Shown piece by piece: positions 1 to 6,371 of a DNA stretch of 64,000 bases (position 1 is the stretch's first letter; each line of letters opens with the position of its first letter). Where the stretch lies: the NCBI GenBank assembly GCA_020718105.1, contig DYDA01000003.1, positions 17,332 through 81,331 of the forward strand, in the 5' to 3' direction. The DNA comes from Micavibrio sp. (lineage in GTDB: Bacteria > Pseudomonadota > Alphaproteobacteria > UBA9219). The notes beneath the pieces are model-generated. The model did not search any database. It was not told where the DNA came from and saw nothing but the letters and a program-made list of their open reading frames with translations. The translations under genes and the position numbers were made by a program.

Positions 1-138
1 CCTCTTTATACGCTGAAGGGGCTGAGAATCGATAAAAAACACAAGATTCGTTGATTCTATTGGGTTTTTTCTTGTGGATTTGAGTTGTCATTTTGATGCG
101 ATTTTGCCTCTTAAAACACAAGCCTACAGCAAGCGTTC

Positions 139-645
139 TTAAAGCTGATCGATGCACGTGACGATGTCTTCCTTGGGGAGGGCGTCCCACAAAGCCTGAA
201 CCGTTTTCCCCAACGTGGGATGAACGCGTTGTGGGCAAATATCGCTTAATGGTTTTAGAACGAAGGAGCGTTCAGCCATCAGCATATGGGGAATTGTTAG
301 GTGGGGGCTTTGCATGACGACGTCATCAAAAAAAAGGATATCGATATCGATGACGCGTGGACCATAGTGAAATGTTGGCAAACGTCCCAACTCTATTTCA
401 ATATCCTTGATGGTATAAAGAAGGCCTTTGGGATCAAACGCTGTCGTTCCACAAAGCGCGGCGTTGAGGAAAAGGGGCTGGTCACCAGCATAGGACGACA
501 CCGTTTCATAAGCGGGAGAGCAGGCCTCAATCTCTATATAGGGGCGCAGCGCTTCCTTTGCTTTGCGAAGATAGGCAAGACGATCACCCACATTCGATCC
601 AAGGCTAAGCGCTACGGCGTGCTGTTTGGGGCTGGTTTCATTCAT
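139..645 (-). CDS. folK: 2-amino-4-hydroxy-6-hydroxymethyldihydropteridine pyrophosphokinase
   Basis: FolK transfers pyrophosphate from ATP to 6-hydroxymethyl-dihydropterin in cytosolic folate synthesis. The N-terminal signature ALSLGSNVGDR (about residues 12-22) and the family motif GPRVIDIDIL (about 95-104), whose acidic residues bind Mg-ATP, are both intact, and the roughly 168-residue length fits HPPK. The frame stays open upstream with a possible TTG at 684 and an ATG at 675. The ATG at 645 is chosen because the conserved region starts only nine residues later; none of the three starts has a clear ribosome binding site. It is divergent from the glutamate kinase gene across about 200 bp. 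No other folate gene is adjacent (folC is about 52 kb away). The function is secure, the start is not. Confidence 0.9.
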   Translation of the reverse strand: MNETSPKQHAVALSLGSNVGDRLAYLRKAKEALRPYIEIEACSPAYETVSSYAGDQPLFLNAALCGTTAFDPKGLLYTIKDIEIELGRLPTFHYGPRVIDIDILFFDDVVMQSPHLTIPHMLMAERSFVLKPLSDICPQRVHPTLGKTVQALWDALPKEDIVTCIDQL

Positions 646-842: not shown

Positions 843-1751
843 ATGAATCAAGCCATCGATCAACAGCGAAAAACAATTGTTGTAAAAATAGGAACCGAGG
901 CTTTAAGCAACGCTCAGGGCCTTCCTGATCTGACCGTTCTTGCGCCCCTTACCCAGCAGCTTTCTGCTTTAAAAAAAGAGGGTAAGGCTGTTGTTCTTGT
1001 CACGTCGGGGGCTGTGGGCGTCGGGCGTCATCTTTTGGGCTGGGATAAGGCAAAAAAGCTGACGCTTCGTGAGCGCCAAGTGGCATCGAAACGCGGCCAA
1101 GTTGAATTGATGAGTCTTTATGGTGATCTCCTTCGTTATGACGATATCGGCGTCACCCAATCCCTGTTTGAAAGAAGTCATTTCGGTCGGGGGGATATCA
1201 GCCCGAAGGAAGATGTCGCTGCGCCCCTTTTTGTTGAGATTGGTATGCCCAACATCATCCCCATCATTAATGAAAATGATGGTGCGGCGACGACTGAGCT
1301 TCGTTTTACCGATAATGATCAGTTGGCGAAGCACGTTGCGCGTTTAATCCAAGCCGATACGCTGATCGTCTTATCCAATGTAGACGGCGTTTATACGACG
1401 AACCCCAGTGATCCAGCGGCAAGGAAAATAAACACCATTAATTTTTGTGACCCTTCTTCGTGGCAAGGCATCAATACGGATGGAACCTCTTCAAGTGGTC
1501 TTGGCGGGATGAAGGGCAAGATCAAGTCGGCGCATTGTTTCTTGTGCGGCCGCGAGGGTGAACGTCTTTGCGACTCCGCACCGTGGGCGCATTGGGAGCG
1601 GGAGGTTTTTATCGCCAGTTCGCGTACACCGAACGTTATCACGCGTCTTTTGGCGGGAGATGAGGGCGTGGGAACCAGACTTGTGTGTCGCCCGCAGGAA
1701 TATAAAGTCGGCACAGGGTGTTTTGTAACCTGCGCTAAGACCAACGGCTAA
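843..1751 (+). CDS. proB: Glutamate 5-kinase, short form without PUA domain
   Basis: The protein belongs to the amino-acid kinase fold and most resembles glutamate 5-kinase, the first step of proline synthesis. Visible motifs are VVKIGTEAL (13-21), the phosphate loop SGAVGVGR (55-62), PIINENDGA (140-148), FTDNDQLA (155-162) and LSNVDGVYTT (177-186). It ends at 302 residues, so the C-terminal PUA domain found in many ProB proteins is missing. Residues 231-253, between KIKSA and VFIASSRTPN, form a Cys/Trp/His-rich segment that is longer than the usual loop and unlike the family (see findings). A GAGG ribosome binding site lies five bases before the ATG. No proA gene is nearby. The specificity could differ from ProB, so the symbol is probable rather than certain. 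Confidence 0.8.
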   Translation: MNQAIDQQRKTIVVKIGTEALSNAQGLPDLTVLAPLTQQLSALKKEGKAVVLVTSGAVGVGRHLLGWDKAKKLTLRERQVASKRGQVELMSLYGDLLRYDDIGVTQSLFERSHFGRGDISPKEDVAAPLFVEIGMPNIIPIINENDGAATTELRFTDNDQLAKHVARLIQADTLIVLSNVDGVYTTNPSDPAARKINTINFCDPSSWQGINTDGTSSSGLGGMKGKIKSAHCFLCGREGERLCDSAPWAHWEREVFIASSRTPNVITRLLAGDEGVGTRLVCRPQEYKVGTGCFVTCAKTNG

Positions 1752-3814: not shown

Positions 3815-5854
3815 ATGGCTGAAGAAAACAAAACGCAACAGGAAAATTGGGGATCGGGTCTTCCTTTGGAAGGGCGCTTCTTTTTGTATCCGGATAAAGC
3901 CTTGCCCGCCTTTAATGCTGCGGGAGGGGTTGCTTATGCTGCGCGGTATAAGAATGATGCAACGCAGGCGTTTATAGGCATTATCAGCTCTGGCGGGGTG
4001 TTGCCTCGCATTGAAAACGTTCATGCCATGAGAATGATTGATAGCCCCAGCATTCTGCGCTTGTGTGAGGGTGGTGTTATTCATTGGCCCGCCCAAAACG
4101 CCAATTGTTATGCTTTAGTTTATGAACAGCCGTCCGCTGAGCGGCATTGGAAGTCTTTTAATGAGACGCATCCTGTTATGAGCGAAGATACCGTCAATAA
4201 CGCGTTCATCATTCCCATGATTAAGGCGCTCCTTGAGTTTCAGCGCACGGGGCTTGTGCATGGCGCGATTAGGCCGACCAATATCTTTTGGCGAGAAGGA
4301 AGCATGACCCCGCCACAAATCGGGGATGGCCTTTCGGCGCCTTGTGGTATTGGGCAGCCCAGTCTTTTTGAAACAATTGAAAGAGCCCTTTGTCAGCCTA
4401 TTGCGCGCGGCGAGGGAAATCACGTCGATGATTGTTATGCTTTTGGGATGACCTTGGCTTTTGTTATTTTGGGGAGTCATCCCTTTCAGGGAATGGATGA
4501 TCAAGCTATTCTTCGTTTAAAGCTTGATAAAGGGTCGTTTAGCGCCACGTTAGGAAACCGTCGCTTGCCACCTGCTCATATTGAACTCTTGCGTGGGCTT
4601 TTAAGCGATGACCCGCGTCAAAGGTGGACAGCCGAAGACCTAGAGCAATGGATGACAGGGCGGCGCTCTACGCCGAAAAATTCTGACGCGGGGCGCCGCG
4701 CCAGCCGTCATTTTTCCATAGCGGGTAAGGAGTATTGGCAGCTTCGTCCCTTAGCCGCAGGCATGGCTGAAAATGTGGCTGAGGCTGTTAAAGTTATAGA
4801 AAACGGAAGCCTTGAAAAATGGATAACGCGTTCTTTGGGGGATGATGAGCGCGCCAAAGGCGTTGCCGAAGTCGTGGATGAAATCAACGAAAAGGGAAAA
4901 ACGGCTTCGTACCAAGATCAGTTGGTCGCGCGGGTTTGTATCGCTCTTGATCCTGTTTCTCCCATCCGTTATCGCGGTCTGTCGGTTATGCCACGAGGGA
5001 TTGCCACGGTTTTGGCTGAGGCGATGATGACGGGGCAGAATCTTCAGGTGCTTAGCGAAATCCTGACGTCACGCTTTGTGACGCTTTGGGTGAACATGCA
5101 AAAAGATGTCAAAACCGATTTGGTTCCTTTGGCGCAGCAGCTGGAGAGAATGGCTTCTTACGCCGAGAAAACATCTTTTGGAAGCGGGTTAGAGCGTGTT
5201 CTTTATGAGATGAATACGGGCGCGCCTTGTCTCAGCCCTCTTTTTAAAGGTGATTTTGTTCTCTCGCCTAAACAGATTTTAAATTCATTAGAGCGCGTGG
5301 CGGCTTCTGGCTCGCGCCCCAGTGAGCCGATGGATCGGCATTTGGCGGCGTTCTTGGTCGCGCGGGAAAAACGCAGCGAATCTCTTTTTACCGCCATGGG
5401 GCTTGGTGCGCCCAGTTTAAAGCGCGGTCTTGCCTTGCTCTCTTTGTTTGGAGAGATGCAGAATCGTTATGGCCCCGATAAACTGCCGCACCTTTGCGCT
5501 TGGTTGATGCCTCTTGTAGAGCCTTGTTTGCGGCGCTTTCTTAGTAAGCCGCTTCAAGACAAAGTGCGCCGTCAGGCCAAAGAGGCCGTTGATCAAGGGA
5601 GCCTTTCTTTATTGCTTAAACGGGTGGATGACACGGCGCGGGTTGTCGGTGACGAAAACGATTTTCTTGCGGCGCGGTCTATGTATCGCAACATACAAAA
5701 AGAGATGGCGACGATAGAAAGGAACATCAACAATAAGAATCAAGTGGCGCGTGAAATGGGTCGTCCTATCTCCGCGAGCATCGCCAGTTTATTGGCGCTT
5801 ATTTTGATTGCTGTAACTTTGTGGAAAACGGTGTGGCAAGGGTTGATGGGATAG
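3815..5854 (+). CDS. Pseudokinase-like protein with C-terminal membrane anchor
   Basis: Roughly the first 290 residues resemble a eukaryotic-type Ser/Thr kinase: the catalytic-loop region reads LVHGAIRPTNIFW (near residue 149), followed by VDDCYAFGMTLAFVILGSHPF, the usual helix F/G segment. The active-site residues are absent: the HRD Asp is replaced (HGAIRPTN), no VAIK lysine is evident near AFIGIISSGG, and IGDG stands where DFG would be. It is therefore probably a pseudokinase. The following 350 residues are helical, charged and unrecognised. The last 25 residues form one hydrophobic helix (SIASLLALILIAVTLW), giving a cytosolic body tethered to the inner membrane. The start is the ATG of MAEENKTQ; a TTG ten codons upstream is less likely. 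A small membrane protein gene follows four bases later, suggesting a two-gene unit. Confidence 0.72.
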   Translation: MAEENKTQQENWGSGLPLEGRFFLYPDKALPAFNAAGGVAYAARYKNDATQAFIGIISSGGVLPRIENVHAMRMIDSPSILRLCEGGVIHWPAQNANCYALVYEQPSAERHWKSFNETHPVMSEDTVNNAFIIPMIKALLEFQRTGLVHGAIRPTNIFWREGSMTPPQIGDGLSAPCGIGQPSLFETIERALCQPIARGEGNHVDDCYAFGMTLAFVILGSHPFQGMDDQAILRLKLDKGSFSATLGNRRLPPAHIELLRGLLSDDPRQRWTAEDLEQWMTGRRSTPKNSDAGRRASRHFSIAGKEYWQLRPLAAGMAENVAEAVKVIENGSLEKWITRSLGDDERAKGVAEVVDEINEKGKTASYQDQLVARVCIALDPVSPIRYRGLSVMPRGIATVLAEAMMTGQNLQVLSEILTSRFVTLWVNMQKDVKTDLVPLAQQLERMASYAEKTSFGSGLERVLYEMNTGAPCLSPLFKGDFVLSPKQILNSLERVAASGSRPSEPMDRHLAAFLVAREKRSESLFTAMGLGAPSLKRGLALLSLFGEMQNRYGPDKLPHLCAWLMPLVEPCLRRFLSKPLQDKVRRQAKEAVDQGSLSLLLKRVDDTARVVGDENDFLAARSMYRNIQKEMATIERNINNKNQVAREMGRPISASIASLLALILIAVTLWKTVWQGLMG

Positions 5855-5858
5855 GCGC

Positions 5859-6371
5859 ATGAGCGAGAACCAAGAAGAAAAAGGGAAAAAAGAAAAAAAC
5901 GCCAAGCCCAAGAAAGGTGGGTTTAAACTTATCTTGGTGATGGTGGTTATGGGCTGTCTTGCGCCCTTTGGTGTGCCCACGCTTCTTGTTTGCATGGGGC
6001 TCGCGCCGACGCTTGTCGCGCTGGTGACGGATACTGATGAAAATCGATCGGGGCTTGCAACGATAGGCTATATGAACTTTGCGGGGGTGCTGCCGTTTTT
6101 GATTGATCTTTGGCAAAACGGCCAAACGATGGAAGCGGCGCTGGCCATCGTTCGCCAACCTTTTTCATGGGCGATTATGTTGGGGGCGGCAGGGATCGGC
6201 CATTTGATCCTTTACGCTGTGCCGCCCGTGATTGCCTCGGTCTTTTTGATCAATCAAGAAAGTCGTTTGCGCACCCTACGCGAAGGGATGCAACAGCTAG
6301 AGGCCATCTGGGGCCCTGATGTTGCTTCCACGACATCGCTGGATGCCGTGAAGAGCAGTAGAGGCGGATAG
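5859..6371 (+). CDS. Small multi-spanning membrane protein, partner of the pseudokinase
   Basis: I do not recognise this 170-residue protein. The first 22 residues are highly charged (Lys/Glu-rich, cytosolic). Hydrophobic segments follow at about 23-55 (LILVMVVMGCLAPFGVPTLL, then VCMGLAPTLVALVTD), about 67-85 and about 100-130 (AIMLGAAGIGHLILYAVPPV), and a charged, coiled-coil-prone tail (INQESRLRTLREGMQQLEAI) ends the protein. It starts four bases after the pseudokinase stop, so the two are almost certainly cotranscribed and may form a membrane complex; that is inference from spacing. The next gene, lysS, converges with eleven bases between the stops. Confidence 0.75.
   Translation: MSENQEEKGKKEKNAKPKKGGFKLILVMVVMGCLAPFGVPTLLVCMGLAPTLVALVTDTDENRSGLATIGYMNFAGVLPFLIDLWQNGQTMEAALAIVRQPFSWAIMLGAAGIGHLILYAVPPVIASVFLINQESRLRTLREGMQQLEAIWGPDVASTTSLDAVKSSRGG

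What the first reader, a model, noticed from the sequence alone, without database searches (positions are those of the whole stretch)
3815..6371. Pseudokinase plus small membrane protein as a two-gene module
The larger protein has the shape of a Ser/Thr kinase domain but lacks the HRD aspartate (HGAIRPTN), the VAIK lysine and DFG. It carries a 350-residue unknown region and a C-terminal membrane helix. The partner, four bases downstream, has a charged N-terminus, several helices and a coiled-coil tail. This looks like a membrane signalling or scaffolding complex with no name known to me.
Basis: partly seen in the sequence, partly recalled or inferred. Interest (0 to 1): 0.6.

Follow-up and report, generated by a model that had tools for sequence, protein, structure and literature searches.

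The report
Membrane pseudokinase with obligate small partner
Many alphaproteobacteria carry a membrane-anchored 'dead' protein kinase that practically always comes with one small membrane protein, and the sequences suggest that the two bind each other as a scaffold whose job in the cell nobody has described.

Summary
Window 3815-5854 encodes a 679-aa protein: a kinase-fold domain (model residues 12-283), an unknown helical region and one long C-terminal helix ending in a membrane segment. Four bases on, 5859-6371 encodes a 170-aa membrane protein with a helical tail. In 65 aligned rows the beta3 Lys is absent from all, the HRD Asp from 64, and the DFG Asp is mostly Gly: a pseudokinase family, not one decayed gene. 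Among 387 alphaproteobacterial genomes the pseudokinase is found in 131 and the partner in 130 of the same 131; in 126 of the 130 with listed places they are adjacent. Tandem duplicates are duplicated as pairs. Coevolution over 186 pairs gives a suggestive antiparallel contact, rich in opposite charges, between the two C-terminal helices (P about 0.02-0.2 by test; a stricter null was not passed). In the window's genome this is the only Pfam-Pkinase match. Best explanation: a two-protein inner-membrane complex with the dead kinase as cytoplasmic scaffold; client unknown. The recurrent site is purA-[pair]-rpoH; in one lineage the partner lies behind ftsH, a lead only. No match to the named bacterial pseudokinase families that I tested.

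The parts
3815..5854 (+). pseudokinase gene, 679 aa
   Evidence: conserved family, alignments A1 and A4
3848..4663 (+). kinase-fold domain, residues 12-283
   Evidence: model, structural match to kinases 11..282, PF00069 69-276
4259..4282 (+). HGAIRPTN in place of HRDxxxxN (residues 149-156)
   Evidence: Asp position not Asp in 64 of 65 rows; Arg153 in 63 and Asn156 in 64
4322..4330 (+). GDG (family G[E/D]C) in place of DFG (residues 170-172)
   Evidence: first position Gly in 63 of 65, second E/D in 61 of 65
4688..5626 (+). helical region of unknown fold, residues 292-604, with conserved GxGxER..Y, C.S and DRHxAA
   Evidence: no convincing family
5633..5848 (+). single 72-residue C-terminal helix (607-678): coiled-coil-like half, then membrane segment
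   Evidence: hydropathy 648-678
5859..6371 (+). small membrane partner, 170 aa
   Evidence: family alignment A2
5916..6119 (+). first membrane part, residues 20-57 (broken helices) and 64-87
   Evidence: model of a relative mapped to P0002; hydropathy covers 19-59 only
6159..6311 (+). last membrane helix running into the C-terminal helix, residues 101-151
   Evidence: hydropathy 103-132; coevolution with the pseudokinase tail helix
6309..6314 (+). invariant WG dipeptide (residues 151-152)
   Evidence: invariant in 35 of 35 rows

Best explanation
An inner-membrane complex of two proteins that depend on each other. The pseudokinase is held by one C-terminal membrane helix, with its dead kinase domain and an adjoining helical region in the cytoplasm. 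The small multi-helix membrane protein binds it through an antiparallel pairing of the two C-terminal helices next to and in the membrane. The kinase fold does not transfer phosphate; it serves as a docking or switching surface for a cytoplasmic client at the membrane. Shown here: catalytic motifs lost family-wide, fold (predicted), co-occurrence, co-duplication, anatomy. Suggested: the helix-helix contact. Inferred: topology, scaffold role. Not known: the client.
For: Loss of the catalytic marks kept over 65 rows while other residues of the pocket region (R65, R153, N156, E/D171) stay conserved. Co-occurrence 130 of 131 genomes, partner never alone, 256 of 387 without either; 136 of 147 listed partner genes lie downstream of a pseudokinase on the same strand; tandem duplicated pairs in G334, G268, G151. 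Named loci: partner in 70 of 80. Pseudolikelihood coevolution over 186 pairs: among the strongest inter-protein couplings 630-136, 617-155, 623-143 and 627-140 lie on one antiparallel line; 630-136 has opposite charges in 106 of 186 (4 of them swapped) and like charges in 8; 623-143 opposite in 68 (6 swapped), like in 9; 627-140 hydrophobic. Raw maximum 0.339 against 0.18-0.21 in four shuffles. Only Pkinase match in G000, G003 and G025.
Against: The band test is marginal: P 0.06-0.20 when all registers are searched, 0.02-0.09 for the restricted helices, and a mean-field analysis with cluster-wise shuffling did not exceed its null. Six kinase-domain couplings to the small protein pass z 6 in mean-field DCA without forming a pattern that I recognise. 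No natural fusion of the two genes among the loci held. The contact inside the two-chain model could not be inspected (no coordinates or PAE; pTM 0.75). Four genomes of f123 and some others hold a second pseudokinase copy without an adjacent partner, and two genomes of f17 hold four partner genes for one pseudokinase.
Confidence: 0.6

Rival explanations
1. The pocket is reused: the protein binds a nucleotide or other ligand, or carries out a different transfer reaction (as SelO does AMPylation), and the membrane partner transmits or uses this.
For: R65 (64 of 65), R153 (63), N156 (64), an acidic residue at 171 (61), Q181 and D206 (65 of 65) are kept although the classical motifs are gone; strong coupling 103-171.
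Against: Beta3 Lys, HRD Asp, DFG Asp and mostly the Gly-rich loop are lost together; conserved residues may only hold the fold.
Confidence: 0.18
2. The pair is a membrane adaptor of the protease FtsH, for instance for turnover of sigma-32.
For: In genus g3 the partner gene directly follows an FtsH-like frame in 9 of 9 loci read, 5-12 bases away in 8 (FtsH confirmed by NCBIfam for one); elsewhere the pair often lies beside rpoH.
Against: The ftsH position looks like one event in one lineage, and G007 has it behind a YchF-like gene instead (by eye). serC, hisZ, purA, rpoH and rluD are housekeeping neighbours, and rpoH is convergent.
Confidence: 0.08
3. An envelope or polysaccharide function: relocated copies sit near such genes.
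For: Wzi and SLBB genes in L265, GT41 in L278 and L285, GT2 in L280, GT4 and DUF218 near an extra partner copy in L065.
Against: Chosen by eye; a scan of 71 of 125 neighbours of relocated copies gave no dominant family (GGDEF 6, GT41 3 of 71); no background rate was measured.
Confidence: 0.06
4. Two neighbouring genes kept together by operon history without physical contact.
For: Both usually stay at the same place; the coevolution test is marginal.
Against: Co-occurrence persists where the genes have separated and copies are duplicated as pairs.
Confidence: 0.08

Closest known systems
EssB/YukC (pseudokinase of type VIIb secretion)
   Same: Cytoplasmic dead kinase domain on one membrane helix, non-catalytic scaffold that contacts the other components (PMC9600267 abstract and outline; PMC12599244 section 4, part 1).
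   Different: No YukC model among Pfam or NCBIfam matches; here the kinase domain is followed by an unknown helical region and comes with one small membrane partner, in alphaproteobacteria; no secretion genes noticed in the neighbourhoods looked at.
GLW pseudokinases (proteobacteria)
   Different: The defining GLW at the HRD position occurs in 0 of 65 rows; here it is mostly H[G/R/N]xIRPxN.
MviN/ActPs3 pseudokinases
   Same: Membrane-linked pseudokinase with loss of all motifs (PMC12599244, passages and Table 1).
   Different: MviN carries the pseudokinase domain in a larger transmembrane protein (a multi-pass flippase, recalled); here a single membrane helix, and HxxxRxxN is kept.
WNK kinases
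   Same: Best structural match of the domain, Z 23.6; WNKs also lack the beta3 Lys (recalled).
   Different: The catalytic Asp and DLG Asp of WNKs (recalled) are absent here; other kinases follow within 1-2 Z.
SelO
   Same: Kinase fold with altered motifs (PMC12599244, section 4, part 1).
   Different: SelO keeps Lys and DYG (its Table 1); here both are lost; no SelO model matched.

Membership tests
Hanks-type Ser/Thr kinase (PF00069) | kinase fold | tested here: met
   predicted model and profile matches
Hanks-type Ser/Thr kinase (PF00069) | score over Pfam's cut-off | tested here: not met
   26.6 of 31.7 bits
Hanks-type Ser/Thr kinase (PF00069) | beta3 Lys, HRD Asp, DFG Asp | tested here: not met
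   beta3 Lys 0 of 65, HRD Asp 1 of 65, DFG column Gly in 63 of 65
GLW pseudokinases | GLW in place of HRD | tested here: not met
   0 of 65
[quoted passage not shown]
   hydropathy segment 648-678
EssB/YukC | match to the YukC/EssB family | tested here: not met
   not among Pfam or NCBIfam matches at E<=1 for P0001, nor among Pfam matches of 32 relatives at E<=0.1
EssB/YukC | part of a type VII secretion locus | tested here: inconclusive
   purA, rpoH, hisZ, rluD, tilS, ftsH and other neighbours; no dedicated search for such a system was made
MviN / ActPs3 | pseudokinase domain fused to a multi-pass MurJ-type flippase (recalled) | tested here: not met
   one hydrophobic region in P0001; no MurJ match
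SelO | retained Lys and D of DFG (Table 1 of PMC12599244) | tested here: not met
   no SelO match
ActPs1, ActPs2, CP1, DYD, DLHK families | their family-specific motifs and linked domains | not tested
   only the review was read in part; the underlying atlas was not found in the library

The most novel reading that the evidence does not exclude
A widespread alphaproteobacterial membrane regulator built on a pseudokinase that, in some genomes, is the only protein-kinase-type fold left: a dedicated two-protein adaptor that steers a membrane machine such as the FtsH protease, and through it the sigma-32 heat-shock response, without any phosphorylation.
Probability: 0.07. Interest if true: 0.8.

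Novelty: new variant of a known kind. Interest (0 to 1): 0.52.

Why it matters
Bacterial pseudokinases are largely unexplored experimentally (PMC12599244, abstract). This is a well-bounded family with a fixed partner, found in cultured genera such as Azospirillum, Skermanella and Thalassospira, so its function can be tested by deletion and co-purification. It would be a clean case of a kinase fold kept for binding alone, in some genomes that seem to hold no other Pkinase match.

Tried and rejected
Natural gene fusion of the two proteins: searched in all loci then held, none. The long open frames around some partner genes are therefore not fusions.

Defence system: PADLOC matches (MkoA, PD-T4-6, mad6) fall on the kinase domain (MkoA reaches residue 352); the partner has none. 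Rejected.

Known domain in residues 292-604: Pfam, NCBIfam and PDB profile searches gave nothing better than E 5e-4 in single members.

MI with APC on all columns was dominated by nearly invariant columns and was set aside. Mean-field DCA with cluster shuffles did not support the antiparallel band; pseudolikelihood DCA did so marginally. One search failed by a script error and was repeated. The first hand-made alignment misread minus-strand loci and was replaced.

Common neighbours of relocated copies: no dominant family (71 of 125 neighbours listed were given). Literature: no description found in the searches (search listings; two papers opened).

Full report
What is there. Window 3815-5854 encodes a 679-residue protein and 5859-6371 a 170-residue protein on the same strand, four bases apart. 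The flanking genes, an ABC-F ATPase of the Uup type upstream and a lysine-tRNA ligase downstream, run on the other strand. No promoter-like or terminator-like excess over shuffles was seen.

The larger protein. Pfam finds a protein kinase domain below its cut-off (E 4.9e-6), and a profile of relatives finds PDB kinases at 6e-12. The AlphaFold2 model from a 65-row alignment has mean pLDDT 91 and pTM 0.84: a kinase fold up to about residue 283, a helical region 300-604 and a single helix 607-678. The kinase part superposes best on WNK kinases (Z 23.6, rmsd 2.8, 254 residues, 18% identity), with many other kinases within 1-2 Z, so WNK kinship is not claimed. In 65 aligned rows (the window plus 64 of the 80 named loci; mostly near-identical or broken ones left out) the beta3 Lys is absent from all, the HRD Asp from 64, and the DFG Asp column is Gly in 63; HxxxRxxN is otherwise kept (R153 in 63, N156 in 64), R65 in 64 and an acidic residue at 171 in 61. 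So the catalytic loss is family-wide, and the domain is under strong constraint. Residues 292-604 match no family at a convincing level.

The smaller protein. A Lys-rich start, hydrophobic segments at 19-59 and 103-132, and in the model of a relative a helix corresponding to 101-151. P50, N73, G76, W151 and G152 are invariant in 35 rows. No Pfam, NCBIfam or PDB relative of note.

Distribution. In 59 genomes (the own one included) the large protein was found in 40 (one of them, G039, only as a weak kinase-domain match) and the small in 38. In 387 class genomes at least 90% complete the profiles found 131 and 130; all 130 lie within the 131, the exception being G383 with a weaker match. Among the 130 genomes whose places were listed, 126 have the genes adjacent, and 136 of 147 listed small genes lie directly downstream (window -50 to 700 bases, same strand). 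In a phylum sample of 397, all 20 matches to the small protein lie in the same class (how many of the 397 lie outside the class is not shown). Named carriers include Azospirillum, Skermanella, Thalassospira and many metagenome-assembled Rhodospirillales. In the 80 named loci the partner is beside the pseudokinase in 70; nine of the other ten are of the split g3 type and one contig ends there (contig lengths). Copies duplicated in tandem are duplicated as pairs (G334, G268, G151). Exceptions: a second pseudokinase without adjacent partner in G119, G153, G235, G304 and G367, and in G266 where the contig ends, and four partner genes for one pseudokinase in G046 and G164.

Neighbourhood. The recurrent arrangement over many families is hisZ-purA-[pair], then convergent rpoH-rluD, often with serC or serA upstream (identities of purA, rpoH, hisZ and a RluA-family gene from one locus each; serC and serA named by eye). 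In genus g3 of the window's family the pseudokinase follows tilS and the partner follows an FtsH-like frame in 9 of 9 loci read, at 5-12 bases in 8 and 199 in one. G007 has its partner behind a YchF-like gene (by eye). These places are leads, not evidence of function.

Physical contact. From 220 adjacent pairs 186 non-redundant ones were kept (effective number 141). Pseudolikelihood coupling on the pseudokinase tail and the whole small protein ranks 630-136 first, with 617-155, 623-143, 657-120 and 627-140 among the seven strongest. With the two helices alone the top three are 630-136, 623-143 and 617-155, and the raw maximum is 0.339 against 0.18-0.21 in four shuffles. Residues at 630-136 carry opposite charges in 106 of 186 pairs and like charges in 8; at 623-143 opposite in 68, like in 9, with swaps in both; 627-140 is hydrophobic. 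This is what an antiparallel coiled coil would give. But searching all registers the best band has P 0.06-0.20, 0.02-0.09 for the restricted set, and mean-field DCA with cluster-wise shuffling stayed below its null. I count this as suggestive. The two-chain model (L086, genes read as one chain) has pLDDT 88.7 and pTM 0.75, but its contacts could not be read.

No classical kinase to serve. In 16 genomes searched with PF00069 at E<=0.001, G000, G003 and G025 match only at the pseudokinase itself. G075 and G181 have another match over the cut-off; some others have weak partial matches in frames of 450-560 aa, which I take to be UbiB-like from recall; five (G009, G052, G097, G154, G242) have no match at all, although the family profile finds the pseudokinase there. 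G000 is 96.4% complete, so absence is not proven.

Conclusion. The most likely reading is a two-protein inner-membrane complex with a dead kinase domain as cytoplasmic docking or switching surface. The comparison with EssB/YukC, MviN and GLW pseudokinases rests on a 2025 review (PMC12599244: outline, passages, section 4 part 1) and on the abstract and outline of PMC9600267. It may work like such scaffolds; it fails at least one tested membership feature of each. The kinase atlas on which the review builds was not found in the library, so I cannot exclude that this family is listed there under another name.

Noticed in passing
L286 and L287 (G304, G367); G235:C5, G153:C35: Four genomes of family f123 carry a second, divergent pseudokinase copy without an adjacent partner gene, in a shared local context in the two loci read.
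   Followed up: partly
L062, L063, L064, L065 (G046); G164: Two genomes of family f17 have four small-partner genes but one pseudokinase gene; one extra copy lies near glycosyltransferase and DUF218 genes.
   Followed up: partly
L041, L042, L044-L047, L049-L051: The small-partner gene sits directly behind an FtsH-like frame in genus g3.
   Followed up: partly
L145:9980-11983: The pseudokinase frame is split in two in this metagenome contig, perhaps a sequencing error.
   Followed up: no
window 843-1751: A glutamate-5-kinase-like gene of 302 aa whose C-terminal part looks unusual to the eye; not checked for a frameshift.
   Followed up: no
L120: A contig labelled Asaia bogorensis carries the Rhodospirillales-type purA-pair-rpoH order; the label may be wrong.
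   Followed up: no
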